From Pseudonocardia ammonioxydans (lineage in GTDB: Bacteria; Actinomycetota; Actinomycetes; Mycobacteriales; Pseudonocardiaceae): a stretch of DNA of 64,000 nucleotides. Under the pieces are notes generated by a model, which had not been told where the DNA came from, searched no databases, and saw nothing but the letters and a program-made list of their open reading frames with translations. The position numbers and the translations under genes are program-made. Shown here one piece after another: positions 36,419 through 47,162 of the stretch (position 1 is its first letter; every line of letters begins with the position of its first letter). The stretch is from positions 62,001 to 126,000 of the forward strand of contig NZ_FOUY01000012.1 in assembly GCF_900115005.1 (NCBI RefSeq), written 5' to 3'.

Positions 36419-36456
36419 CTGCCCGGCACCTACGACGCTGCCCGGCGCCTACGACG
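36419..36456. repeat. Two-copy 19-bp direct repeat at the end of the CotH-like gene
   Basis: GCTGCCCGGCACCTACGAC is followed directly by the same 19-mer with one change. The second copy enters the 3' end of the CotH-like gene. Confidence 0.6.
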
Positions 36457-38077
36457 CCGGGTGCAGGAGCGGGTCGGCGGCCACCGCCTCCGCACGCCGG
36501 TCCAGCAGGGCCCGCAGGTCGTCGGCCTCCCGGAGGATGGTCGCGCGATCCTCCTCGGCGGCGGCACCGGTCGCCGCGGCGACGGCCCGGTCCAGGGCCG
36601 CGACGGCGGCCCCGCTGCCGTAGATCTGCTGGTGGAGCTCCCGGTAGGCCTCGTCGTAGGCGGCCGTGAACGCCGGCGTCGCCAGGAAGCGGTCCTTGAG
36701 CAGGTGGCCCTGCAGCATCCCGCCCGGACCACCCGGACCGGGCCCACCGCCGGGCGGAGCGGCGGCGGCCCCGTCCTCGGGCACGGCGGCGCCCTCCGGG
36801 GGTGCCCCACCGCCGGGGCCGCGGCCGCCGAACAGGGCCGCCATGCTCACCTCGTCGTGCGGGCCGGTGGTGGGGTCCCCGCTCGCGGCCAGGTTGAGGT
36901 CCCAGGCGATCACCTCGAACCGCTCGGTCCCCAGGTCGTACCGGAGGTAGTAGTTCTTCCCCGGCCCGGCCATGTCGTCGACGTTCAGCAGCAGGTTCTG
37001 CGTGGCGAGGTAGCGGGCGAAGGACCCGACGTCGAGGTGGTCGCCGAGCTCGGCGGCGAACTCCTCGTCGGTGGCCCGCTGGACCCACTGGATCAGGTCG
37101 ATGACCGGCTGCAGGTCCTGGCTGCCGATCCGGTTGATCTGCTCGACGTCGTCCTCGTAGGCGGTCGGGTCGTCGCCCTGGTCGGTGAACGAGCTGCTCG
37201 CCCGGGACTTGTAGAGCACTCCGTCCCCGGCGAACCGCGCCTCGGCGTAGGACTCGTCGGGGTGCTCGACGATCAGGCGGGCGGTGGCGGGCCGGTCGTT
37301 CACGGTGAGGGCGGCGTAGGTGTGGGCCTGCCCGGTCTGCCCGGTCCGGTCCACCATCGCCAGCGCCACCGACTCGTTGAGCGCGACGGTGGAGCTGCCG
37401 CTCGACGGGCGGACCGCGATCTCGCTGCGGCCCTGGAACAGCCGGCCCTCGGCGAACTCGTCGAAGCTGATCAGGTAGGGCAGGTTCTCCGGCTCGTCCG
37501 CCGACAGCGTCACGCTGCCGATCCCCCCGCCGGGCGGGCCCGCCGGACCGTCGCCGCCGCCCTGCCCGGGCGGCGGGACACCCTCCGGCAGTTCCCTTCC
37601 TTCCAGAGGTCGCATTCCGCCCGGGCCGCGGCGCCGTTCGCCGGGGTCGGCGTCCGGGTCCTGCAGTGACATCAGCGTCGAGTTGCCCTTGAGCCGCACC
37701 CCGACGTCGTCGATCCGGGCACCGTCGATGACGACGTCGGCCTGGAGGTGCTCCTTCTCGCCCTCGTCGTACCAGGCGGTGAGGATCCGCCGGTAGTCGT
37801 CCTCGCGGAAGGTGAGCTGCACGCTGTGGGCGACCGAGGTGTCGAACAGGTCGGCGTTGCCGGCGATGTCCTCGGTCACCGCCGGGGCCTCGTACCGGTC
37901 GTCGCCGGTGACGTAGGGCACGACCCTGCTCGAACCGAACACCCCCAGGGTCAGGGCGAGAAAGGCGGCGAACAGCGCGACCGGACGCCAGTGGTGGCGG
38001 GCACGGACCGGGATCCGGTGCCACCACCGGCGCCGCGGGCCGGCGGCGTGCTTCCGGTCAGCCTGCATCCCGGTCAC
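36449..38077 (-). CDS. CotH-kinase-family membrane-anchored protein
   Basis: A 542-residue protein with one N-terminal transmembrane segment (about residues 28-50, WRPVALFAAFLALTLGVFG) and a CotH-like extracytoplasmic domain: QLTFREDDYRRILT; DVGVRLKGNSTLMSL; LPYLISFDEF; YLATQNLLLNVDDMAGPGKN; FEVIAWDLNLA. Two Gly/Pro-rich inserts interrupt it (about residues 165-200 and 405-445). GTG at 38077 overlaps the DUF4956 stop by GTGA; ATG 38068 is the alternative. CotH proteins are atypical kinases known from spore coats; in actinobacteria they occur with VTC and DUF4956 genes, as here. The substrate is unknown. Confidence 0.82.
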   Translation of the reverse strand: MTGMQADRKHAAGPRRRWWHRIPVRARHHWRPVALFAAFLALTLGVFGSSRVVPYVTGDDRYEAPAVTEDIAGNADLFDTSVAHSVQLTFREDDYRRILTAWYDEGEKEHLQADVVIDGARIDDVGVRLKGNSTLMSLQDPDADPGERRRGPGGMRPLEGRELPEGVPPPGQGGGDGPAGPPGGGIGSVTLSADEPENLPYLISFDEFAEGRLFQGRSEIAVRPSSGSSTVALNESVALAMVDRTGQTGQAHTYAALTVNDRPATARLIVEHPDESYAEARFAGDGVLYKSRASSSFTDQGDDPTAYEDDVEQINRIGSQDLQPVIDLIQWVQRATDEEFAAELGDHLDVGSFARYLATQNLLLNVDDMAGPGKNYYLRYDLGTERFEVIAWDLNLAASGDPTTGPHDEVSMAALFGGRGPGGGAPPEGAAVPEDGAAAAPPGGGPGPGGPGGMLQGHLLKDRFLATPAFTAAYDEAYRELHQQIYGSGAAVAALDRAVAAATGAAAEEDRATILREADDLRALLDRRAEAVAADPLLHPAS

Positions 38078-38760
38078 AGGTCGGTCTGGTCGTACCCGGT
38101 CAGTACCGACACCCGCTGCCCGGCGTTGCGTTCGCGCAGTGCCGCGATCAACTCGGCCGGACCGACGCCCTTCTTGAGACGGACCGTGTAGAACAGCTCC
38201 GTCAACCCGCCCCCACGGATCGACTCGGTGCTGACGAGCTCGAACTCGGTGGTGTGGCGGATCAGGGTGTCGGCGATGACCTGGCTGTAGTCGTCGTCGC
38301 CGGGCACCTGCACCTTGACCACCTGGCGCTGGACGTTCAGGGCGAAGAAGTTGAACCGGTGCATGATCACCACGACCAGGCAGATCGCGACCGTGGCGGC
38401 GACGGCGAGCAGGTAGAAGCGGGTGCCGCAGGCCATGCCGACGCCCATCACCAGGAAGATGAACCCCACGTCGCGGGTCTCCTTGACGGCGTTGCGGAAC
38501 CGCACCACCGACAGCGCTCCGACCAGGGCGAACGCCCGGGCGATGTTCGAGCCGACCACCAGCATGATCAGCGCGATCAGCATGCCCAGGATGACGAGGG
38601 TCTGCACGTAGGACTGGCTGTAGGAGATGTTGCGGTGCGTGGCCCGGTAGACGGTGGCGACCATCAGGCTCAACAGCAGTGACAGGCCCAGCGACGCCGC
38701 CACGTCGAAGGCACTGAACGTGCCGGACAGGTCTTGGAAGTCGATCTGGAACGGGGTCAT
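38074..38760 (-). CDS. DUF4956 membrane protein
   Basis: A 228-residue protein with four to five hydrophobic helices in the first 140 residues, around a conserved charged core GALSVVRFRNAVKETRDVGF, then a soluble C-terminal domain of about 85 residues resembling a small regulatory ACT-like fold (VKVQVPGDDDYSQVIADTLI). It is the middle gene of the VTC-DUF4956-CotH operon; ATGA overlaps the VTC gene and GTGA overlaps the CotH gene, so all three are translationally coupled. Function unknown; probably part of a membrane complex with the VTC protein. Confidence 0.82.
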   Translation of the reverse strand: MTPFQIDFQDLSGTFSAFDVAASLGLSLLLSLMVATVYRATHRNISYSQSYVQTLVILGMLIALIMLVVGSNIARAFALVGALSVVRFRNAVKETRDVGFIFLVMGVGMACGTRFYLLAVAATVAICLVVVIMHRFNFFALNVQRQVVKVQVPGDDDYSQVIADTLIRHTTEFELVSTESIRGGGLTELFYTVRLKKGVGPAELIAALRERNAGQRVSVLTGYDQTDL

Positions 38761-39614
38761 CGGGCGGGAAGCTCCTCGGGAATGTGGAAGACCGATCGCG
38801 GGGCCCTGCCGAAGACCTCGACGCTCTGGCAGTACTTGGACACCCGGACCACGGACAACTCGAGGGCCGCGGCCATGTCGGTGATCCAGTACGGGGCACG
38901 CTCGTTGACCTTGATCTCCATCACGGCCAGGTGCGGGGAGACGGTGAAGCGGTTCTGGGAGTCGGCACCCAGGTGGAAGTCGCGGTCGCGCCCGCGGATC
39001 CGGTGGTCGAGGGTGACCCGCAGCCCCGGGTCGACGTCCCGGCCGACGAAGGGCTCGCGCCGGTAGGAGGTCGTCACGATCGGGCGCAGGTCGTTCTCCA
39101 CGACCAGCGCCAGTACCTCTTCCAGGAACGCGGTCTGCCCCGGCTCGTGCGGGATCATCTCCCGTTCGTCGCACAGCCGGCGGGCCGCGCCGTAGGGGAT
39201 GCGGACCCGGCGCTTCTGGGTGACCCGGTTGACCCGCTGCTTGATCTCCAGGAACACCGGGGTGTCGTCGGTGACCGCGGACCGGTCGCCGTACACGCGC
39301 AGGCGCAGCTTGCGACGGAAGCGCTCCCCCTCGATCTTCTCCCAGTAGAACCGCAACCGCTCCGAGTCGTAGTAGAGGCTCAGGACCTCGTAGCCGCCGT
39401 GCTGCGCGTTCGCGTCACCGTCCATCCGGGACGTGAGCAGCTCGCGGACCTCGGGGACCCGGGCCTCGGGGACCAGGTACTTGAGCTCGTAGCGGTTGAA
39501 CGCGTGCAGCGGGCTCGGCGCACGCAGCGCCGCGGCACCGGCGGCCGGGGCCGGCCCACCGGGCGGCTCGGACCCGGTTGCGGCCGCGGGTCGACGTCGG
39601 CGTGGGAAGAACAT
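38757..39614 (-). CDS. VTC-domain (polyphosphate polymerase-like) protein
   Basis: A 285-residue single VTC domain. The start at ATG 39614 is chosen over an upstream in-frame start at 39728. Hallmarks of the basic tunnel are NRYELKYLV at residue 40, the RRKLRLRVYGD segment, VFLEIKQRVNRVTQKRRVRI with conserved Lys/Arg, and HLAVMEIKVNERAPYWI near the C-terminus. Eukaryotic VTC4 makes polyphosphate from ATP; bacterial stand-alone domains are thought to bind or process polyphosphate or nucleotides. It is the first gene of a three-gene coupled operon. Confidence 0.85.
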   Translation of the reverse strand: MFFPRRRRPAAATGSEPPGGPAPAAGAAALRAPSPLHAFNRYELKYLVPEARVPEVRELLTSRMDGDANAQHGGYEVLSLYYDSERLRFYWEKIEGERFRRKLRLRVYGDRSAVTDDTPVFLEIKQRVNRVTQKRRVRIPYGAARRLCDEREMIPHEPGQTAFLEEVLALVVENDLRPIVTTSYRREPFVGRDVDPGLRVTLDHRIRGRDRDFHLGADSQNRFTVSPHLAVMEIKVNERAPYWITDMAAALELSVVRVSKYCQSVEVFGRAPRSVFHIPEELPAR

Positions 39615-39787
39615 CGCGGGGGCGGACTCCGGAGGATCACGGCGACCTCCGCGGGTCGGGCGGGAGGCGCGCAGCGGAACAGCAGGCGAACATCTGCCAA
39701 TCTCGTCGGCCGGATCCACACCGGTCAACGCACACGACGATCTTCATAACGGACGCACAGGTTCGCGCACCCCGGCTCGGGCAGGCC

Positions 39788-40801
39788 TCAGATCCGCGTC
39801 GGGTCGGCCAGGGCGACGAGCAGCTCGCGCGGGCCCTCGTAGGGGTCCCGGCCATGAGCGGTGCGGATGTTGTCGACGATCAACAGGTCCCCGCTCCGCC
39901 ACGGCTCGCGTACGGCGTTGGCGGCGTAGGCCTGCTGGATCTGGTCCACGAGGTCCCAGCCGATCGGAGTGCCGTCGCCGAAGCAGGTGGTGGCGGGTAG
40001 CCCGTCCGGGCCGAGCACGTCGCACAGCTCGTCACGTGCACCGGGCCCGAAAACCCACTCGCTGAAATGCGCGATCTCGTTGAACCAGCACCGCACACCG
40101 GTGATCGGGTGCCGGACGACGGCCGGGCGGCGCTGCCGGGTACGCAGCTGCCCGCCCGGGCCCCACTCGACCTCGATGGCGCTCGCCCGGCAGTAGTCCT
40201 CGACCCCGTGTCGATCACCGATGCCGAAGGCCTCCGCCCAGGACGGGCCGACGTCACCGTTGTAGGTCCGCACCAGGGTCCAGCCGTCGCGCTCGCAGCG
40301 CCTGACCAGGCTCGCCGGTAGCGCGTCGAGCACCGCCGCGGAGTCGACCAGCACCGTGGCTCCGCCGAGGACGGCCGGGGACAGACAGACGAACATCATC
40401 ACCGCCGGGAACCGGTCGCAGTAGGACAGCTCGTGGTGCGGGCACATCGGGATCCCGCGCGGCCACCGTGTCGAGGAGTAGACGCGGTCGGTGTAGGACG
40501 TGCGGGGCGAGAACGCCTCCCGCTCGTTCATCAGGCCGTCGGCCAGCATCCGGACCACGTCGCCGGCCAGGATCGGGTCGTACAGGCCCAGACCGCGGGC
40601 CAGCACCGCGCCGTGGTCCACCACGGCTGCACGCAGCGCTCGCCGGGACTCGAACGCCCACCGCACGGGATCGTCCGGCTCGGCCCGGAGGAGCACGGGC
40701 GCGCCGGGACGGCGCTCGACGCAGAACGGCTCCGCGGACGTTCGGACGGCCCGGGCCGGGAAGGACGTGTCGGCTCCCCGCGCCGGGCGATCGGCGTTCA
40801 T
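39788..40801 (-). CDS. TauD/SyrP-like Fe(II)/2-oxoglutarate-dependent dioxygenase
   Basis: A 337-residue non-heme iron oxygenase. The metal motif is HxE in PHHELSY (about residue 120); the distal His and the 2-oxoglutarate-binding Arg are in RTAHGRDPYEGPRELLV (about residue 315). The pattern is that of TauD-family enzymes that hydroxylate carrier-bound amino acids in non-ribosomal pathways (SyrP, AsnO). ATG overlaps the stop of the large Pls-like gene by ATGA, so they are made together. The likely substrate is the aminoacyl or peptidyl product of that synthetase; this is inferred from the coupling. Confidence 0.82.
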   Translation of the reverse strand: MNADRPARGADTSFPARAVRTSAEPFCVERRPGAPVLLRAEPDDPVRWAFESRRALRAAVVDHGAVLARGLGLYDPILAGDVVRMLADGLMNEREAFSPRTSYTDRVYSSTRWPRGIPMCPHHELSYCDRFPAVMMFVCLSPAVLGGATVLVDSAAVLDALPASLVRRCERDGWTLVRTYNGDVGPSWAEAFGIGDRHGVEDYCRASAIEVEWGPGGQLRTRQRRPAVVRHPITGVRCWFNEIAHFSEWVFGPGARDELCDVLGPDGLPATTCFGDGTPIGWDLVDQIQQAYAANAVREPWRSGDLLIVDNIRTAHGRDPYEGPRELLVALADPTRI

Positions 40802-43800
40802 ACCGGCACCGGGAGGGACCTGGTGGGGAGCGCACGGGCCGGGTTGCCGCCCCACGTCTCGCCGGCCGGGACCTCCTCGCCCTTCATGAGGAACGAGTCG
40901 GCCTCGATGACGACGTCGTCGCCGATGGTGATCCCGTAGTGCACGAAGGCGCCGACCCCGAGCGTGACCCTCGACCCGATGACCGTGTGGTCGGACTTGA
41001 ACGCGCCGTCCTCCTGGGAGTGGTTCTGCACGATGCTGCGCTCGTTGAGCGTGCAGTCGTCACCGAAGGTGATGAAGGGTCGTTCCACCAGCGAGGCGCC
41101 GTCGTCGAACAGCCGTGCGCCGACCCGCACGCCGAGCATGCGCAACAGCAGGCCCTTGAACGGGGTGCCGTTGAACAGCATCAGATAACTCGGGGCGGGC
41201 ACCTTCCAGAACCGTTCGTGGCCCCAGAAGACCGGCTCGTAGATCGAGCATCCGTGCGGCGCCCGCAGGATCAGCCGGTGAACCGACCGGTCGACCGCGG
41301 TGAACCATCCGACGGTGAGAACGATGATCAGTACCTGCGCGACGAGGATCTCGGCCGCGCCGAGGGTGACCTCCCAGATGGCGATCGCGGGCACCAGCAG
41401 CGCGATCGCGAAGAAGTAGAGCCAGCGGACGGTCAGATGGAGCGCGATGGTGACGGCGTTGTCCCGGTTCTTGCCCCGCAGCGCTCGCCGCAGACCCTGC
41501 TCCCCGAGCTCGAGGCGGGCGTCGCGGGCCACCGTGCGCGGGATCTCGAAGCTCGGGGAGCCGAGCAGGCCGACGTTCTCCCGGACCGGTCCGTCGACCG
41601 GGACCATGACCTTGGTACCGAGCAGGCAGTTGTTCCCGACCCGCGCCCGGGACGGGTAGGCGATCCGGTTCCCGAAGAAGCTGTTCGTGCCGATCGTGGT
41701 CCGGGTCAGCCGGAACGAGGTGTTCGAGTACTCCGCGTTCACGATCGAGAGGTCGTCGGCGACGACCGTTCCGGTGCCGATCGTGGTGAGGTAGGGCGAC
41801 TCGTGCTTGATCAGCATCCCGAAGTTGTTTCCCGTCTGCACCAGGGGCAGCAGGTCGTAACCGACCACGCGGAGGTAGTGCGGGATGGCGGAGCTGTCGC
41901 CGAGCAGCATCGTGAACGTCACGCTGTTGGTCAGCAGGGCGACGGTCTGGTGCAGGAAGTAGTGAACCCCGTAGAGCGGGTAGACCCGGTCCGGCCGGAC
42001 GGCGCACGCCAGCAGGCGCGGAGCGGTGACCATCACCAGGAACGCCACCAGCAGGACGCCGAAGAACAGCACGAAGCTCAGCGCGAGGATCTCGGCGTAG
42101 AAGTACCAGTGGACGAACGCCTCCGGGCCGGGGAACAGCAGCGCCGTCAACTGTGGGACCTCCCGCAACAGCAGCGCGATGCCGCCCAGCGACAGTGGCA
42201 GCCCGACGCCCAGCACGAGCCCCACCTGCACGAGCGAGTAGAGGACCTTCCGAGTCGGTCCGCACCCGAGAGGCGGGACGGTGCAGTAGTTCACGCCCGC
42301 GGGGCGGGCCGGGGAACCGTGCCAGCGTTCGCCGGCAGGCACGACCTGCCCGCTCAGCAGCGCCGAGGTGTGGCCGAGCTGACCGCCGTCGTCGATGCGT
42401 GTGCCGAGCTCGAGAACCGTGGCTTCACCGACGAACGCATCCGCGCCCACGGTGACCGACCCGATCTCGATGACACCGTCGCGGGCCCGATAGCCGGAGA
42501 ACAACGCATCCTTGCGGATCACCGACCGGTCACCGATCGAGAGCAGGTCGGTGCACACCGGCATCGATCCGGCGAACAGGGCCACGTCGCGACCGACCCG
42601 GGCGCCGAGCGAACGCAGGTAGAGCGCATAGAGCGGTGAGCCGCGGAACAGGACCAGCGGGTTCCTCCGCACCAGCGTCCTGACGATCCAGAACCGGACG
42701 TAGTCCAGGCTCCAGACCCGGATCGAGCGGGGTCTCCAGCGACCGATCAACAGCCATTTGACCCCGATGGGGAACAGGCACAGGAAGCCGAAGCCGGCCC
42801 CGCCCACGACGACGGCCCGCACGTAGAGGTCGAGCAGGGTCGGTGACACGACGAACCACTCGTATCCCCAGAACAACACCAGCGCCATGAGATAGGACCA
42901 GCCCACGACGCACGCCACCTGGAGCGAACCACAGAGGACGTATCCCCGGGTGCCGACGCGGCGAACCCCGCCGGGCCGCTCGAGGTCCACCGCGGGCTCG
43001 TCGGGGGGTGCCGGGGAAAGCTCGCCGTTACCGGCCGGTGCGAGCGAGTGGGCCAGACCGACGAGTGTCGGGGCGGCGTAGACGGCCTCCATCGACAGCG
43101 CCGGCAACCCGGGCTCCTTGCGCACGCGCGCACAGAACTTGGCCATGGTCAACGAGTCCGCGCCGAGCTCGAAGAAGTTCGCGTCCGGGGGGATGTCCCC
43201 ACGGCCGAGTATCGCTGCCAGGATCTCCGCGAAGCGCTCCTGCATCAGCGACGGCGAGGGCGGCGCCGGAGCATCGGAGGGAAGGGCGAGCGCAGTGGCG
43301 AGGCGCCGTAGCGTCGGGTGCTGGTAGACGTGCTGGATGGACACCGAGGGCAGGGCCGGGTGGGAGCGGGTCCGCGCGCAGAACTTCGCCATCAGCAACG
43401 AGTCGGCGCCCAGATCGTCGAAGAAGTCCGCATCGATCGAGACCCGTTCCCGGCCCAGTACCCCGCCGAGCAGTTCGGCCAGGACGGCCTCCGATCCCGT
43501 GACGGCCGTGTCCGTCTCGTCCGCAGGCTCGAGCCGTGCCTGTTCCGGGACGGCGGGATCCGACGGCTCCGGACAGCGGTCACGTGCCGGCGCGCCGGCC
43601 TCGACGCGGCCGCAGTACTCGACACGTCCCGCTGCATCGACCCGGCCCAGATCCCCGGTGCGGAAGATCCGTGGCGACGGGGTGCCGGGCACGTCCGGCC
43701 CGTCGACGACGAAGGCCTCCCGGGCCAGCTCGTCACGGTCGACGTAGCCGCGTGCCAGCCCGATCCCGGCGATCCCGATCTCGCCGACGGCACCGTGTGC

Positions 43801-44976
43801 CGGCGTCGTGCGGACGTCCTCCTCGTCCAGCACGACCACGCTGTAGGTCGGTAGCGGGACCCCGAGACAGCTCGCCCGGTCCGGATCCAGCTCGGTCCAG
43901 GTGGCGGCGACGGTCGCCTCGGGCGGACCGTAGGTGCCGATCAGCCGGCGTCCGGGACGGCGCCATCGCCTGATCACATCCGGTGGGCAGGGCGTGCTCG
44001 ACAGCACCAGCCGGAGAGCGAGCAACCGCTCGTCGAGGGCGTCCAGTGTCGCCGCGTCGGCCCGCATCACGGTCACGCACCGCTGGCCGAGGAAGCGCCA
44101 CAGGGTGTCACTCTGCAGCGGTGGTCCGGGCGGCGGTGTCACCACGGTGGCCCCGCAGACCCAGGGCAGCCAGGTTTCCTCCACCAGCAGGTCCGACCCG
44201 GCCGGCTGCCCCTGGTAGATCCGGTCCCCGGAGCCGATGCCGTACACCTCGGCCGCCACCCGGACGACGTTGCACACGCTGCTGTGATCGAACGCGATGC
44301 CGCGGGGACGCCCGTCGGGGTCGACGCTGTAGACGATGTAGGCGACCGGTCCGCCCGGCACACCGCGCTCGAGCACACTCAGCTGCCGGGAACTCTGATC
44401 GGCGATGACGGGGCCGGCGGAGTCGATTGCGACGACGGCGGCCACCGTGTGCGCATCGAGCCGGGGCATACCGGCCGCGATCATCGAGGTCGTCAGCACC
44501 AGGCGTGCACCCGAGTCGACGACGATCGACTCCACGTGCTCCGCACCGAGATCCACGTCCAGTGGGACGTAGGCCGCACCGGCCTTGACCACGGCGAGCA
44601 TCGCGACACACAGGTCCGGTGCCCCGAGGAGGATCACGACCCGGTCGCCCCGGCCGATGTGGTGCAGACGCAGATAGCGGGCCAGGCGGTTCGACTCGCC
44701 GTCGAGCTCCACGTACGTCAGGACCCCACCGACGGTGTCCACGGCCGGACGATCGGCACAGCCGAACCGGACCAGCCACTCGCACTGCGCCTCGAACAGG
44801 TGCTCGAGCCGGTCCGTCGGGCGCGCGCGTCGGCCCTGCGGCTCACGAGGATCGACCAGGACCTGTCCCGGCGGGACACCGGGCAGGTCGCGGTCGACGG
44901 CGTCGGCCTCGTCGCCTCGTCGGCCCGTTCGAACATCGTCGTCCGGCGTCCGGACCAACAGCCCCCAGTCGATCAC
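40798..44976 (-). CDS. Pls-like membrane NRPS with degenerate adenylation domain, tandem carrier and beta-helix domains
   Basis: A 1392-residue protein; GTG at 44976 follows GAGGGGGG. Order: adenylation-like domain (about 70-455; VVKAGAAYVPLD, GTYGPPEATV, IFRTGDL), two carrier domains with phosphopantetheine Ser in GADSLLMAKF (about 523) and GADSLTMAKF (about 605), helices from about 683, then three left-handed beta-helix (hexapeptide-transferase-like) blocks (about 785-895, 1052-1145, 1285-1392) separated by membrane segments. This is the architecture of Pls/PosA-type poly-amino-acid synthetases such as epsilon-poly-lysine synthetase. The A3 loop is YSVDPDGRPRG instead of TSGSTGxPKG, and only about 40 residues lie between A7 and the first carrier, so the A8-A10 subdomain with its catalytic Lys is missing. 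Product unknown. Confidence 0.8.
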   Translation of the reverse strand: MIDWGLLVRTPDDDVRTGRRGDEADAVDRDLPGVPPGQVLVDPREPQGRRARPTDRLEHLFEAQCEWLVRFGCADRPAVDTVGGVLTYVELDGESNRLARYLRLHHIGRGDRVVILLGAPDLCVAMLAVVKAGAAYVPLDVDLGAEHVESIVVDSGARLVLTTSMIAAGMPRLDAHTVAAVVAIDSAGPVIADQSSRQLSVLERGVPGGPVAYIVYSVDPDGRPRGIAFDHSSVCNVVRVAAEVYGIGSGDRIYQGQPAGSDLLVEETWLPWVCGATVVTPPPGPPLQSDTLWRFLGQRCVTVMRADAATLDALDERLLALRLVLSSTPCPPDVIRRWRRPGRRLIGTYGPPEATVAATWTELDPDRASCLGVPLPTYSVVVLDEEDVRTTPAHGAVGEIGIAGIGLARGYVDRDELAREAFVVDGPDVPGTPSPRIFRTGDLGRVDAAGRVEYCGRVEAGAPARDRCPEPSDPAVPEQARLEPADETDTAVTGSEAVLAELLGGVLGRERVSIDADFFDDLGADSLLMAKFCARTRSHPALPSVSIQHVYQHPTLRRLATALALPSDAPAPPSPSLMQERFAEILAAILGRGDIPPDANFFELGADSLTMAKFCARVRKEPGLPALSMEAVYAAPTLVGLAHSLAPAGNGELSPAPPDEPAVDLERPGGVRRVGTRGYVLCGSLQVACVVGWSYLMALVLFWGYEWFVVSPTLLDLYVRAVVVGGAGFGFLCLFPIGVKWLLIGRWRPRSIRVWSLDYVRFWIVRTLVRRNPLVLFRGSPLYALYLRSLGARVGRDVALFAGSMPVCTDLLSIGDRSVIRKDALFSGYRARDGVIEIGSVTVGADAFVGEATVLELGTRIDDGGQLGHTSALLSGQVVPAGERWHGSPARPAGVNYCTVPPLGCGPTRKVLYSLVQVGLVLGVGLPLSLGGIALLLREVPQLTALLFPGPEAFVHWYFYAEILALSFVLFFGVLLVAFLVMVTAPRLLACAVRPDRVYPLYGVHYFLHQTVALLTNSVTFTMLLGDSSAIPHYLRVVGYDLLPLVQTGNNFGMLIKHESPYLTTIGTGTVVADDLSIVNAEYSNTSFRLTRTTIGTNSFFGNRIAYPSRARVGNNCLLGTKVMVPVDGPVRENVGLLGSPSFEIPRTVARDARLELGEQGLRRALRGKNRDNAVTIALHLTVRWLYFFAIALLVPAIAIWEVTLGAAEILVAQVLIIVLTVGWFTAVDRSVHRLILRAPHGCSIYEPVFWGHERFWKVPAPSYLMLFNGTPFKGLLLRMLGVRVGARLFDDGASLVERPFITFGDDCTLNERSIVQNHSQEDGAFKSDHTVIGSRVTLGVGAFVHYGITIGDDVVIEADSFLMKGEEVPAGETWGGNPARALPTRSLPVPV

Positions 44977-45138
44977 CGCGATCCCCCTCACGCACTCGCC
45001 TGTGTGTAGCCGGTTTCGGGCAAGGCGTCGGTAAAACGATCTGGAGAAAGGCAAGAGCAACGTAAAGAACAGGGACTAACGCATTCGAGGGGTCCGGGCG
45101 GGCGCAGCCGGCGCGGGCTCACCGGACCGCCGCGTCGG

Positions 45139-46449
45139 TCAGCCCGGTACCGGAGGCGTGGACGCTGCGCCGGTCGGCTCCGCCGCGGCGCGCACGGGGA
45201 GCAGGAGGGTCACGACCGAGCCGGGTGCGCCGACGGTCAGCCGGCCGCCCTCGCTCTCCGCGAGCCGCTGGGCCAGTGGGAGCCCCATCCCCGCGGAGTG
45301 CTCCGCGCCACGCATCGCGGTCGGCGGGATGCCCGGCCCCTCGTCGGCCACGTCGATCGCGAGCGCGTCCTCTCCGGCTTCGCGGGCCGACACCGAGACC
45401 GCACCGGTGCCGTGCATGCACGCGTTGTCCAGCAGCACCGCGAGGATCTGTCGGACCGCCGCCGAGGAGGCATCCGGATTCGGGAGCCCCTGCGGCGGAC
45501 GAGCAAGCAGGGACCGATCGTCACGGTCGAGCCGGGCCCCCCATTCCTCGACGCATTCGCCGAACAGCACACCGATGTCCGCCGGCTCGACCGAGGCCGC
45601 CTGACGCTCACGCGCCAGGGCCAGCAGCTCGTCGATCGTGCGCTCGAGGCGGTCGATGGAGGCCAGTCCGTCCTCGACCGTGCCGAGGGTGAGTCGCTCC
45701 GGCCGTTCGACCGCGGCCTCCAGGCGCAGCCGGAGTCCGGCGAGCGGGGTCCGGAGCTGATGGGACGCCTCGGCGGAGAAGGCCCGCTCCCGGGCGAGCA
45801 GATCGTCGAGCCGGTGCGCGGTCCTGCTCAGTGCGGCACTCGCCCGGTCGGTCTCGGCGACGCCCGTCGACCGGGGCACGATCCCGAAGTCCCCGTCACC
45901 GAGTCGGTCGGCGTCGGCGACGAGCTGATCCAGTGGACGCGCGAGACGACCGGCCAGGCGCCGGGCGAGCAACCACGCCGAGAAGAGCACCAACCCACCC
46001 AACGCGGCCATGCCCAGCCAGATCGGCAGCAACTGCCCGTACACCGACGACACCGGCACGACGGCCCGCACCACGCCGACGATGTCGTGGGTGTCGCTGA
46101 CGGGAGCCACCGCGATCAGTTGGTCCGCAGGCCACGGGCCATCGGAGCCGTCCAGGACGTAGTCGACGGGGGCGTCACCCTCCGGCGGCCCGACCCCGAG
46201 GAGCCGCTCGCCGTCGTCGTCGTACAGGGCGACGGCCGCGTCGTCGGGTGCATCGGGCAGGCTCGTCGGGACCCGGTCGTGGGCCATGTCCTCCTGCACC
46301 GTACGGACGGCGAACACGGCGAGTCGTTCGAGCGATGCCTGCTCCTCGGAGACCGTCAACTGGGCGAGACCGGCGGCGAGCGGGATGCCGAACAGCACCA
46401 CCGAGAACGCCGCCGCGATCAACGCGAGACCGACGATCCGTGACCTCAC
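45139..46449 (-). CDS. Sensor histidine kinase
   Basis: A 436-residue kinase with two transmembrane helices (about residues 5-28 and 145-168) around an extracytoplasmic sensor of about 115 residues, a HAMP domain, H-box ASHQLRTPLAGLRLRL, N-box LLDNACMHG, G1 DEGPGIPP and G2 GMGLPLAQRL. It overlaps the response-regulator stop by ATGA. It sits 162 bp upstream of the Pls-like gene in the same direction, so the pair is the prime candidate to control that locus. Confidence 0.9.
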   Translation of the reverse strand: MRSRIVGLALIAAAFSVVLFGIPLAAGLAQLTVSEEQASLERLAVFAVRTVQEDMAHDRVPTSLPDAPDDAAVALYDDDGERLLGVGPPEGDAPVDYVLDGSDGPWPADQLIAVAPVSDTHDIVGVVRAVVPVSSVYGQLLPIWLGMAALGGLVLFSAWLLARRLAGRLARPLDQLVADADRLGDGDFGIVPRSTGVAETDRASAALSRTAHRLDDLLARERAFSAEASHQLRTPLAGLRLRLEAAVERPERLTLGTVEDGLASIDRLERTIDELLALARERQAASVEPADIGVLFGECVEEWGARLDRDDRSLLARPPQGLPNPDASSAAVRQILAVLLDNACMHGTGAVSVSAREAGEDALAIDVADEGPGIPPTAMRGAEHSAGMGLPLAQRLAESEGGRLTVGAPGSVVTLLLPVRAAAEPTGAASTPPVPG

Positions 46450-47162
46450 CGCTCGGCCCCCGCGGCATCGGCGGGCGGCGGGTCGAGCCGGTATCCGTGC
46501 CCGCGCAGCGTCGTGATGGCCGGTACGCGGTGCGGGGCGAGGTCCGCCAGGCGCCTGCGCAGCGTCGCGATGTGCACGTCGAGTGTCTTCGTGGGGCCGA
46601 ACCAGTGCTCGTCCCAGACATCGGCCATCAGGCGCTCCCGGCCGACCGCGGTCCCGGGTTCGCGGGCCAGCCGGACGAGCAGGTCGAACTCCTTCGTACG
46701 CAGTGCGACCTCCTGGCCTGCGACGAACGTCCGGCGCCGGACCGTGTCCAGGCGCAGATCCCCGATCTCGATCACGGCAGCGGCCTCACCGGCTGCAGAC
46801 CGGCGCAGGTGTGCCCGGACTCGGGCGAGCAGCTCGGCGAGCCGGACGGGCTTGGTCAGATAGTCGTCGGCCCCGGCATCGAGCCCCAGCACGACGTCCA
46901 TCTCCGCGGTGCGGGCCGTGAGGATCACGACGATCGTTGCCGGCAGCGCGGCCCGAACACGCCGGCAGACGTCGATACCGTCGAGGTCGGGCAACCCGAG
47001 ATCGAGCAGCACCAGGTCGAAGGCCGTGTCCGTGACAGCCGACAGGGCCCCGGAGGCGTTCCTCACCCAGCGTGCGTCGTGACCCTCGTCGACCAGGATC
47101 GTCTGCAGCACGTCCCCGATCGTGGCGTCGTCCTCGACGACCAGCACCCGACTCGCGGTCAT
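46446..47162 (-). CDS. OmpR-family response regulator
   Basis: A 238-residue regulator: receiver domain (residues 5-118; VVEDDA, phospho-Asp in LLDLGLPDL, Lys in LTKPV) and a winged-helix output domain (residues 135-228; LRTKEFDLLVRLA; TKTLDVHIATLRRRL; TTLRGHGYRL). ATG at 47162 follows GAGGGAAC. It is first in a co-directional series with the kinase, Pls-like synthetase and TauD genes. It probably activates that cluster, by position only. Confidence 0.9.
   Translation of the reverse strand: MTASRVLVVEDDATIGDVLQTILVDEGHDARWVRNASGALSAVTDTAFDLVLLDLGLPDLDGIDVCRRVRAALPATIVVILTARTAEMDVVLGLDAGADDYLTKPVRLAELLARVRAHLRRSAAGEAAAVIEIGDLRLDTVRRRTFVAGQEVALRTKEFDLLVRLAREPGTAVGRERLMADVWDEHWFGPTKTLDVHIATLRRRLADLAPHRVPAITTLRGHGYRLDPPPADAAGAER

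What the first reader, a model, noticed from the sequence alone, without database searches (positions are those of the whole stretch)
39788..47162. Two-component-controlled Pls-like synthetase plus dioxygenase locus
A response regulator, a sensor kinase, a 1392-residue Pls/PosA-like synthetase and a TauD/SyrP-like dioxygenase lie head to tail on one strand, and the last two overlap by ATGA. Established: Pls-type enzymes make poly-amino acids such as epsilon-poly-lysine, and TauD/SyrP enzymes hydroxylate carrier-bound amino acids. Inference: the locus makes a hydroxylated poly- or oligo-amino-acid, or decorates an acceptor, in response to an envelope signal. This combination does not match a described system that I know.
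Basis: partly seen in the sequence, partly recalled or inferred. Interest (0 to 1): 0.7.

Follow-up and report, generated by a model that had tools for sequence, protein, structure and literature searches.

The report
Polymer synthetase with dead activating domain
A Pseudonocardia gene pair encodes a membrane enzyme that strings amino acids together and an oxygen-using partner; the enzyme seems to have lost its own loading site, so it probably borrows pre-activated amino acids from other enzymes, which would be a new arrangement for this family.

Summary
The four genes are present as described. The synthetase-dioxygenase pair is a real, recurrent unit: in 60 genomes, 34 of 43 dioxygenase homologues have a Pls within 12 kb, all on the same strand, and 42 of 43 have at least one of Pls, stand-alone C'-A-T enzyme, SbnA or SbnB. 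The key correction: the synthetase's adenylation domain is degenerate, with P-loop lost and C-terminal subdomain deleted. An intact P-loop motif was found in 0 of 34 dioxygenase-linked Pls against 58 of 82 unlinked. The carriers are doubled and the polymerisation domain is well kept. Related loci hold SbnA, Pls, C'AT, TauD and SbnB, i.e. 2,3-diaminopropionate supply plus a separate loading enzyme; the window copy lacks these, but its genome has two such loci. Best reading: a derived, partly plasmid-borne two-gene cassette loaded in trans, making an oxidised diaminopropionate-type oligomer. The two-component link is recurrent but not fixed. Product unknown. New variant of a known kind.

The parts
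40798..44976 (-). Pls/PosA-type synthetase, 1392 aa: degenerate A - T - T - membrane polymerisation domain
   Evidence: TIGR02353 654 bits; Pfam AMP-binding, 2 PP-binding, hexapeptide
43606..44841 (-). Degenerate adenylation domain (residues 46-457), without C-terminal subdomain
   Evidence: No AMP-binding_C; A7-to-carrier-Ser 88 aa against 167-181 in most intact domains compared; model ordered to about residue 457, then a low-confidence linker, then two helical carriers
44299..44343 (-). Degraded A3/P-loop: AYIVYSVDPDGRPRG, where intact relatives read e.g. AYLIYTSGTTGRPKG
43294..43512 (-). Carrier T1, LGADS, Ser526
43048..43266 (-). Carrier T2, LGADS, Ser608
40837..42933 (-). Membrane polymerisation domain (PlsC, TIGR02353)
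   Evidence: match 2-695 of 695; keeps 146 of 161 positions invariant in 8 intact-A Pls
39788..40801 (-). TauD/SyrP-like Fe(II)/2-oxoglutarate dioxygenase; H122-x-E124, H316, R325
   Evidence: PF02668 128.5 bits; these residues invariant in 37 of 37 aligned (their metal and 2-oxoglutarate roles are recalled); model pLDDT 86.6, not compared with solved folds
45139..46449 (-). Sensor kinase, two hydrophobic segments, H box SHQLRTP
46446..47162 (-). OmpR-type response regulator
44977..45138 (-). 162-nt gap between kinase and synthetase; a promoter here is possible, not shown

Best explanation
The core is a two-gene cassette. The synthetase is a Pls/PosA-type membrane polymerase whose own adenylation domain can most likely no longer activate an amino acid. 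Its two LGADS carriers are most likely aminoacylated in trans by stand-alone C'-A-T enzymes, of which this genome has two at other loci (C50, C93), each with SbnA and SbnB genes for L-2,3-diaminopropionate. The dioxygenase hydroxylates or otherwise oxidises the carrier-bound residue (on these carriers or on the C'-A-T enzyme), and the membrane domain joins residues into a short polymer or oligomer. A membrane-bound kinase probably tunes expression. Shown: gene content, degenerate A domain, paired carriers, kept polymerisation domain, recurrent pairing, gene content of related loci, purifying selection. Inferred: loss of activity, trans loading, L-Dap as monomer, site and type of oxidation, polymer product, regulation.
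For: P-loop and C-terminal subdomain lost; the P-loop lysine is absent in the window and kept in 0 of 23 other degenerate copies. Intact P-loop motif in 0 of 34 dioxygenase-linked against 58 of 82 unlinked Pls. A clade of 51 rows (SH-aLRT 98) holds the A-degenerate and A-less Pls with three exceptions; window subclade support 100 (quick method). Related loci: C'AT near 31, SbnB near 31, SbnA near 29 of 43 TauD. Class-wide, C'AT directly beside TauD in 20 of 22 and SbnB in 17 of 22. Natural C'-A-T-TE-TauD fusion. All four genomes that have a dioxygenase-linked Pls without an adjacent C'AT and were searched for it (own, G012, G014, P. parietis) have C'AT elsewhere. dN/dS against the P. parietis plasmid copy: PlsC 0.13, TauD 0.22, T1 0.24, A 0.26. 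Precedents seen: inactive A domains complemented by stand-alone A-T modules, with an N-terminal extension needed in ramoplanin (PMC8949500, section 4.1 in full); A-less CmnI loaded in trans with L-Dap (PMC12400406, passages); SyrP-like CysJ acting on carrier-bound Asn (PMC7966384, passages); poly-Dap synthetase (PMC4668381, parts 1-2 of 5).
Against: No C'AT, SbnA or SbnB match within 12 kb of the window pair. Trans loading between distant loci is untested, and the window carriers (LGADS) differ from the C'AT's own (LGGTS or similar). C'AT substrate unknown: its nine-position code DIWQSTADD (7 of 7) returned no paper. Beta-hydroxylation of Dap would give an unstable carbinolamine (general chemistry, no call), so the oxidation or the monomer may differ. 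24 unlinked Pls also lack the intact P-loop motif, so A loss is not specific to the dioxygenase. The last carrier is under weaker constraint (dN/dS 0.49, against a possibly non-corresponding third carrier).
Confidence: 0.55

Rival explanations
1. The pair decorates an acceptor (envelope component, peptide or small molecule) with one or a few modified amino acids instead of making a homopolymer.
For: Tandem carriers and a membrane domain would fit transfer to an envelope acceptor; some plasmid copies lie near cytochrome c biogenesis and TlpA genes and apolipoprotein N-acyltransferase.
Against: The characterised Pls enzymes in the papers seen polymerise (PMC4668381, PMC10522769); the domain keeps 146 of 161 positions; no acceptor gene was found shared across contexts.
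Confidence: 0.2
2. Relic cassette: after losing its A domain and supply genes it no longer makes anything and persists by copying and plasmid transfer.
For: P. autotrophica copy has an IS256 inside the gene near the start of the A region; the EC080610-09 and EC080619-01 plasmid copies have a broken A region; DNA similarity limited to the two genes.
Against: Polymerisation domain and dioxygenase stay open and under purifying selection; carrier serines kept; three copies in this genome.
Confidence: 0.15
3. One reading: a self-sufficient Pls with dedicated two-component control makes a hydroxylated poly-amino acid from its own adenylated monomer.
For: Head-to-tail order with overlaps; kinase and regulator homologues enriched near such loci.
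Against: A domain lacks P-loop and C-terminal subdomain; no regulator found beside the pair in the other subclade loci; 162-nt gap between kinase and synthetase.
Confidence: 0.05
4. The monomer is not Dap: C'AT loads another amino acid and SbnA/SbnB serve a different step, or the window pair uses other donors. This overlaps with the best explanation in all but the monomer.
For: C'AT code unassigned; plasmid-type relatives carry a PLP enzyme scoring 237-238 bits to SbnA, below the 349.95 cut-off; window pair has no Sbn genes beside it.
Against: SbnA and SbnB accompany C'AT and TauD widely.
Confidence: 0.25

Closest known systems
Poly(L-diaminopropionic acid) synthetase, Streptomyces albulus PD-1 (PMC4668381, parts 1-2 of 5 read)
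   Same: Pls architecture; L-Dap made by SbnA/SbnB-like enzymes NjxA/NjxB, a pair also present in the related loci
   Different: That enzyme has one A domain with measured activity and one PCP domain; the parts read mention no dioxygenase, and the text seems to place the Dap genes away from the synthetase (my part ends mid-sentence there). Here A is degenerate, carriers are doubled and a dioxygenase is paired
Epsilon-poly-L-lysine synthetase and PosA delta-poly-L-ornithine synthetase (PMC10522769, passages)
   Same: Membrane polymerisation domain of the same family
   Different: Own A domain activates the monomer; no partner dioxygenase in the passages seen
Trans-complemented inactive or missing A domains: albicidin, ramoplanin, enduracidin, syringomycin SyrB1/SyrE (PMC8949500, section 4.1)
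   Same: Stand-alone A-T supplies a module with a dead or missing A; N-terminal extension on some A-T; modification on the carrier
   Different: Those are multimodular assembly lines, not Pls polymerases
[quoted passage not shown]
   Same: A-less T domain loaded in trans with L-Dap
   Different: Not a Pls; no dioxygenase pairing in the passages seen
SyrP / CysJ hydroxylases (PMC7966384 and PMC8949500, passages)
   Same: TauD-family enzymes acting on carrier-bound amino acids; some database homologues are named SyrP or AmbC
   Different: Substrates there are Asp/Asn; here unknown

Membership tests
Pls/PosA synthetase | C-terminal membrane polymerisation domain (TIGR02353) | tested here: met
   654 bits, cut-off 423.1; 146 of 161 invariants kept
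Pls/PosA synthetase | Carrier domain with phosphopantetheine serine | tested here: met
   Two, Ser526 and Ser608
Pls/PosA synthetase | Functional A domain activating the monomer | tested here: not met
   Sequence test only: P-loop degraded, AMP-binding_C missing; no assay
Pls/PosA synthetase | Homopoly(amino acid) product | not testable with these tools
   no chemistry available
Trans-complemented NRPS module | Dead or missing A domain in the acceptor | tested here: met
   By sequence
Trans-complemented NRPS module | Stand-alone A-T with intact motifs in the same genome | tested here: met
   C50 and C93
Trans-complemented NRPS module | Stand-alone A-T encoded in the same cluster | tested here: not met
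   Not within 12 kb of the window pair; present for 30 of 34 TauD-linked Pls rows (recount)
Trans-complemented NRPS module | Measured loading of the acceptor carrier | not testable with these tools
   needs an assay
SyrP-like dioxygenase | TauD domain with facial triad | tested here: met
   H122/E124/H316 invariant in 37 of 37; triad assignment recalled from the family
SyrP-like dioxygenase | Hydroxylation of a carrier-bound amino acid | not testable with these tools
   fusion to C'-A-T-TE in P0195 is indirect support

The most novel reading that the evidence does not exclude
A Pls-type polymerase that no longer chooses its own monomer: tandem carriers are charged in trans by C'-A-T enzymes, the residue is oxidised while carrier-bound, and the result is a hydroxylated or oxidised homopoly(amino acid) of a kind not found in the papers searched, spread as a two-gene plasmid cassette that uses the host's resident diaminopropionate machinery.
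Probability: 0.3. Interest if true: 0.75.

Novelty: new variant of a known kind. Interest (0 to 1): 0.55.

Why it matters
The characterised poly-amino acid synthetases of this type in the papers seen have the activating site built in. A clade that dropped it and takes monomers from a separate enzyme would show how the polymerase is fed, allow monomer swapping in laboratory hosts, and point to modified cationic polymers not described in the papers searched. The loci give a clean test: load the tandem carriers in trans and look for a dioxygenase-dependent mass shift.

Tried and rejected
Rejected: (1) a larger operon with VTC, DUF4956 and CotH: tblastn found none of these in the related loci L048-L072. 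(2) The four-gene set as a conserved unit: no regulator found beside the other subclade copies in the stretches fetched. (3) An active A domain: motifs and subdomain missing. (4) Reading the C'AT code from literature: no hit; PheA positions were mapped by motif spacing that I recalled, not against a PheA sequence. (5) Literature on hydroxylated or dioxygenase-linked Pls polymers: none among the listings of searches of the held open-access library; each shows only its top rows and subscription papers are missing.

Limits and dropped rows: 0 of 34 against 58 of 82 counts related sequences, not independent events, and rests on the A3 motif alone; 5 of 125 Pls regions were not fetched, 4 truncated ones dropped; C36 was counted as dioxygenase-linked because its 3' end lies on contig C120. 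From I left out two rows that are further pieces of genes already listed, and its search scored at most 15 candidates a genome (10, 16, 5), so lists may be incomplete. For some searches I gave the best 54 kinase rows and the best 52 regulator rows, and all over-cut-off SbnB rows plus 7 lower-scoring fragments chosen by hand; one search gave 8 of 50 kinases, one of them resting on such a fragment, so repeats the counts without the 7 fragments (7 of 50; the TauD counts do not change). Tree: quick method, 60 chosen of 120 Pls plus 7 others. My notebook has two slips: 35 of 43 should be 34 of 43, and one search was not counted against the cap.
Full report
What is there. The four genes are present at the stated coordinates on the - strand with the stated overlap. 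The synthetase belongs to the Pls/PosA family by NCBIfam TIGR02353 (654 bits).

The adenylation domain is degenerate. Pfam finds AMP-binding but no AMP-binding_C, and two carrier domains. The P-loop reads AYIVYSVDPDGRPRG where intact relatives have, for example, AYLIYTSGTTGRPKG, and the distance from motif A7 to the carrier serine is 88 residues against 167-181 in most intact domains compared. The window keeps 104 of 156 A-core positions that are at least 95% conserved in 22 intact Pls; the P-loop lysine is lost in the window and kept in 0 of 23 other degenerate copies. An AlphaFold2 model (19 rows, mean pLDDT 82.3, pTM 0.66) is ordered to about residue 457, then has a low-confidence linker, then two helical carriers. 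The polymerisation domain keeps 146 of 161 positions that are invariant in 8 intact-A Pls (the two criteria differ). Carrier number varies in the subclade: two in C74 and C99, three in C36, both P. parietis copies, P. alni and P. autotrophica.

The dioxygenase goes with A loss. For 116 of 125 Pls matches in 60 genomes the upstream region could be read (5 not fetched, 4 truncated). An intact P-loop motif is present in 0 of 34 dioxygenase-linked and 58 of 82 unlinked Pls (Fisher p about 1e-13; Pseudonocardia only: 0 of 34 and 48 of 72). Of the 34, 18 keep an A remnant and in 16 no A7 motif was found. The sequences are related, so this is not 34 events: on a tree of 67 Pls a clade of 51 rows (SH-aLRT 98) holds the A-degenerate and A-less ones and no intact one, with three exceptions outside it: G016 C55 29194 (degenerate, linked) and G030 C87 and G015 C107 (no motif found, unlinked, in a distant branch). 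The 24 unlinked Pls without the motif show that A loss is not tied to the dioxygenase alone.

Related loci. They hold SbnA, Pls, C'AT, TauD and SbnB, either SbnA-Pls-C'AT-TauD-SbnB or Pls-C'AT-TauD-SbnB-SbnA (coordinates). The SbnA and SbnB tested pass their NCBIfam cut-offs for 2,3-diaminopropionate synthesis. C'AT is a stand-alone enzyme of about 845 residues: an N-terminal part, in one of four scanned a weak match to half a condensation domain, without HHxxxD in 7 of 7; an A domain with its C-terminal subdomain (4 of 4 scanned); and a carrier found in most. In 60 genomes 34 of 43 TauD homologues have a Pls within 12 kb, all on the same strand; C'AT is near 31, SbnB near 31, SbnA near 29, and at least one of the four near 42. 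Of the nine without Pls, at least three lie within 3 kb of a contig end (positions). In a class-wide sample of 394 genomes, 22 TauD matches lie outside the own genome; C'AT (57% identity or more) is directly beside 20 and SbnB beside 17. One database protein fuses C'-A-T-TE and TauD (P0195), and many listed Streptomyces C'AT relatives carry a C-terminal TE. Of 30 same-strand C'AT-TauD pairs, 13 leave a gap of 700 bp or more, room for a TE.

The window pair is a derived form. Its subclade (C74, C99, C36/C120, two P. parietis copies, P. alni, EC080610-09; support 100; P. autotrophica belongs by similarity) has Pls and TauD; no C'AT with its own strong match and no SbnA or SbnB over cut-off was found beside them in the stretches fetched. 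Window-to-plasmid DNA similarity covers only the two genes, and the P. alni, P. autotrophica and two EC0806 plasmids are typed mobilizable. Genomes with a dioxygenase-linked Pls lacking an adjacent C'AT that were searched for it all have C'AT elsewhere: own, G012, G014, P. parietis. dN/dS (Nei-Gojobori, own script) against the P. parietis plasmid copy is 0.13 for the polymerisation domain, 0.22 for TauD, 0.24 for T1 and 0.26 for the A region; the last carrier is looser at 0.49, compared with a third carrier that may not correspond.

Regulation. Kinase and regulator homologues lie within 10 kb of cluster genes in 7 of 50 and 8 of 49 of the best rows outside the own genome, against 0.53 and 0.59 expected from genome fractions (one search gave 8 of 50 with hand-added fragments). 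In the window's subclade the kinases beside the pair in the other loci are 88-96% alike but only about 65% like the window's, lie downstream instead of upstream, and have no regulator match beside them; C99 and the EC0806 plasmids show none. The link to two-component control is recurrent but not fixed.

Mechanism. Trans-complementation of inactive A domains by stand-alone A-T modules, with an N-terminal extension needed in ramoplanin, is described in PMC8949500 section 4.1 (section read in full). Trans loading of L-Dap on an A-less module is shown for CmnI (PMC12400406, passages). SyrP-like CysJ acts on carrier-bound Asn and not on free Asn (PMC7966384, passages). Poly-Dap synthetase is an A-PCP Pls with measured L-Dap activation (PMC4668381, parts 1 and 2 of 5). 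Combining these, the best reading is a trans-loaded Pls with carrier-bound oxidation. Monomer, oxidation type and product are inferred. Simple beta-hydroxylation of Dap would give an unstable carbinolamine (general chemistry), so desaturation, another position or another monomer must be kept open.

Verdict. In the listings of searches I saw no paper describing it.

Noticed in passing
window 36449-39728 (-): VTC, DUF4956 and CotH genes directly follow the dioxygenase (about 60 bp to the VTC ORF) but were not found in the related loci searched; probably a separate operon.
   Followed up: partly
L048, L077, L078, L080: Plasmid-type copies (and a Paenarthrobacter pTC1 Pls with an apparently complete A domain) lie near CcdA/TlpA, and variously ResB/CcsB, rhodanese, apolipoprotein N-acyltransferase, DUF305 or copper ATPase genes, which suggests a redox or copper island.
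   Followed up: partly
L078 10810-12066: IS256 element lies inside the P. autotrophica synthetase gene near the start of the A region.
   Followed up: no
L079 13896-17869; L081: Plasmid copies in EC080610-09 and EC080619-01: A region broken, T-T-polymerisation domain and dioxygenase annotated as genes.
   Followed up: partly
L079 20326-21441; L055 11589-12596: SbnA-like PLP enzymes scoring 237-238 bits, below the SbnA cut-off of 349.95, near two subclade copies; possible different precursor.
   Followed up: no
G000 C120:18997-20978: A second regulator-kinase pair about 17 kb from the C120 dioxygenase; its kinase is 69% like the window's.
   Followed up: no
L083 (Kitasatospora plasmid): A TauD relative (48%) lies in an NRPS cluster with carbamoyltransferase and asparagine synthase genes, beside a C'AT-like protein (57%), with no polymerisation-domain match in the stretch.
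   Followed up: no
window 45016-45055 and L053 8677-8716: A 40-bp stretch upstream of the synthetase is 80% alike between the window and C99; possible shared promoter element.
   Followed up: no
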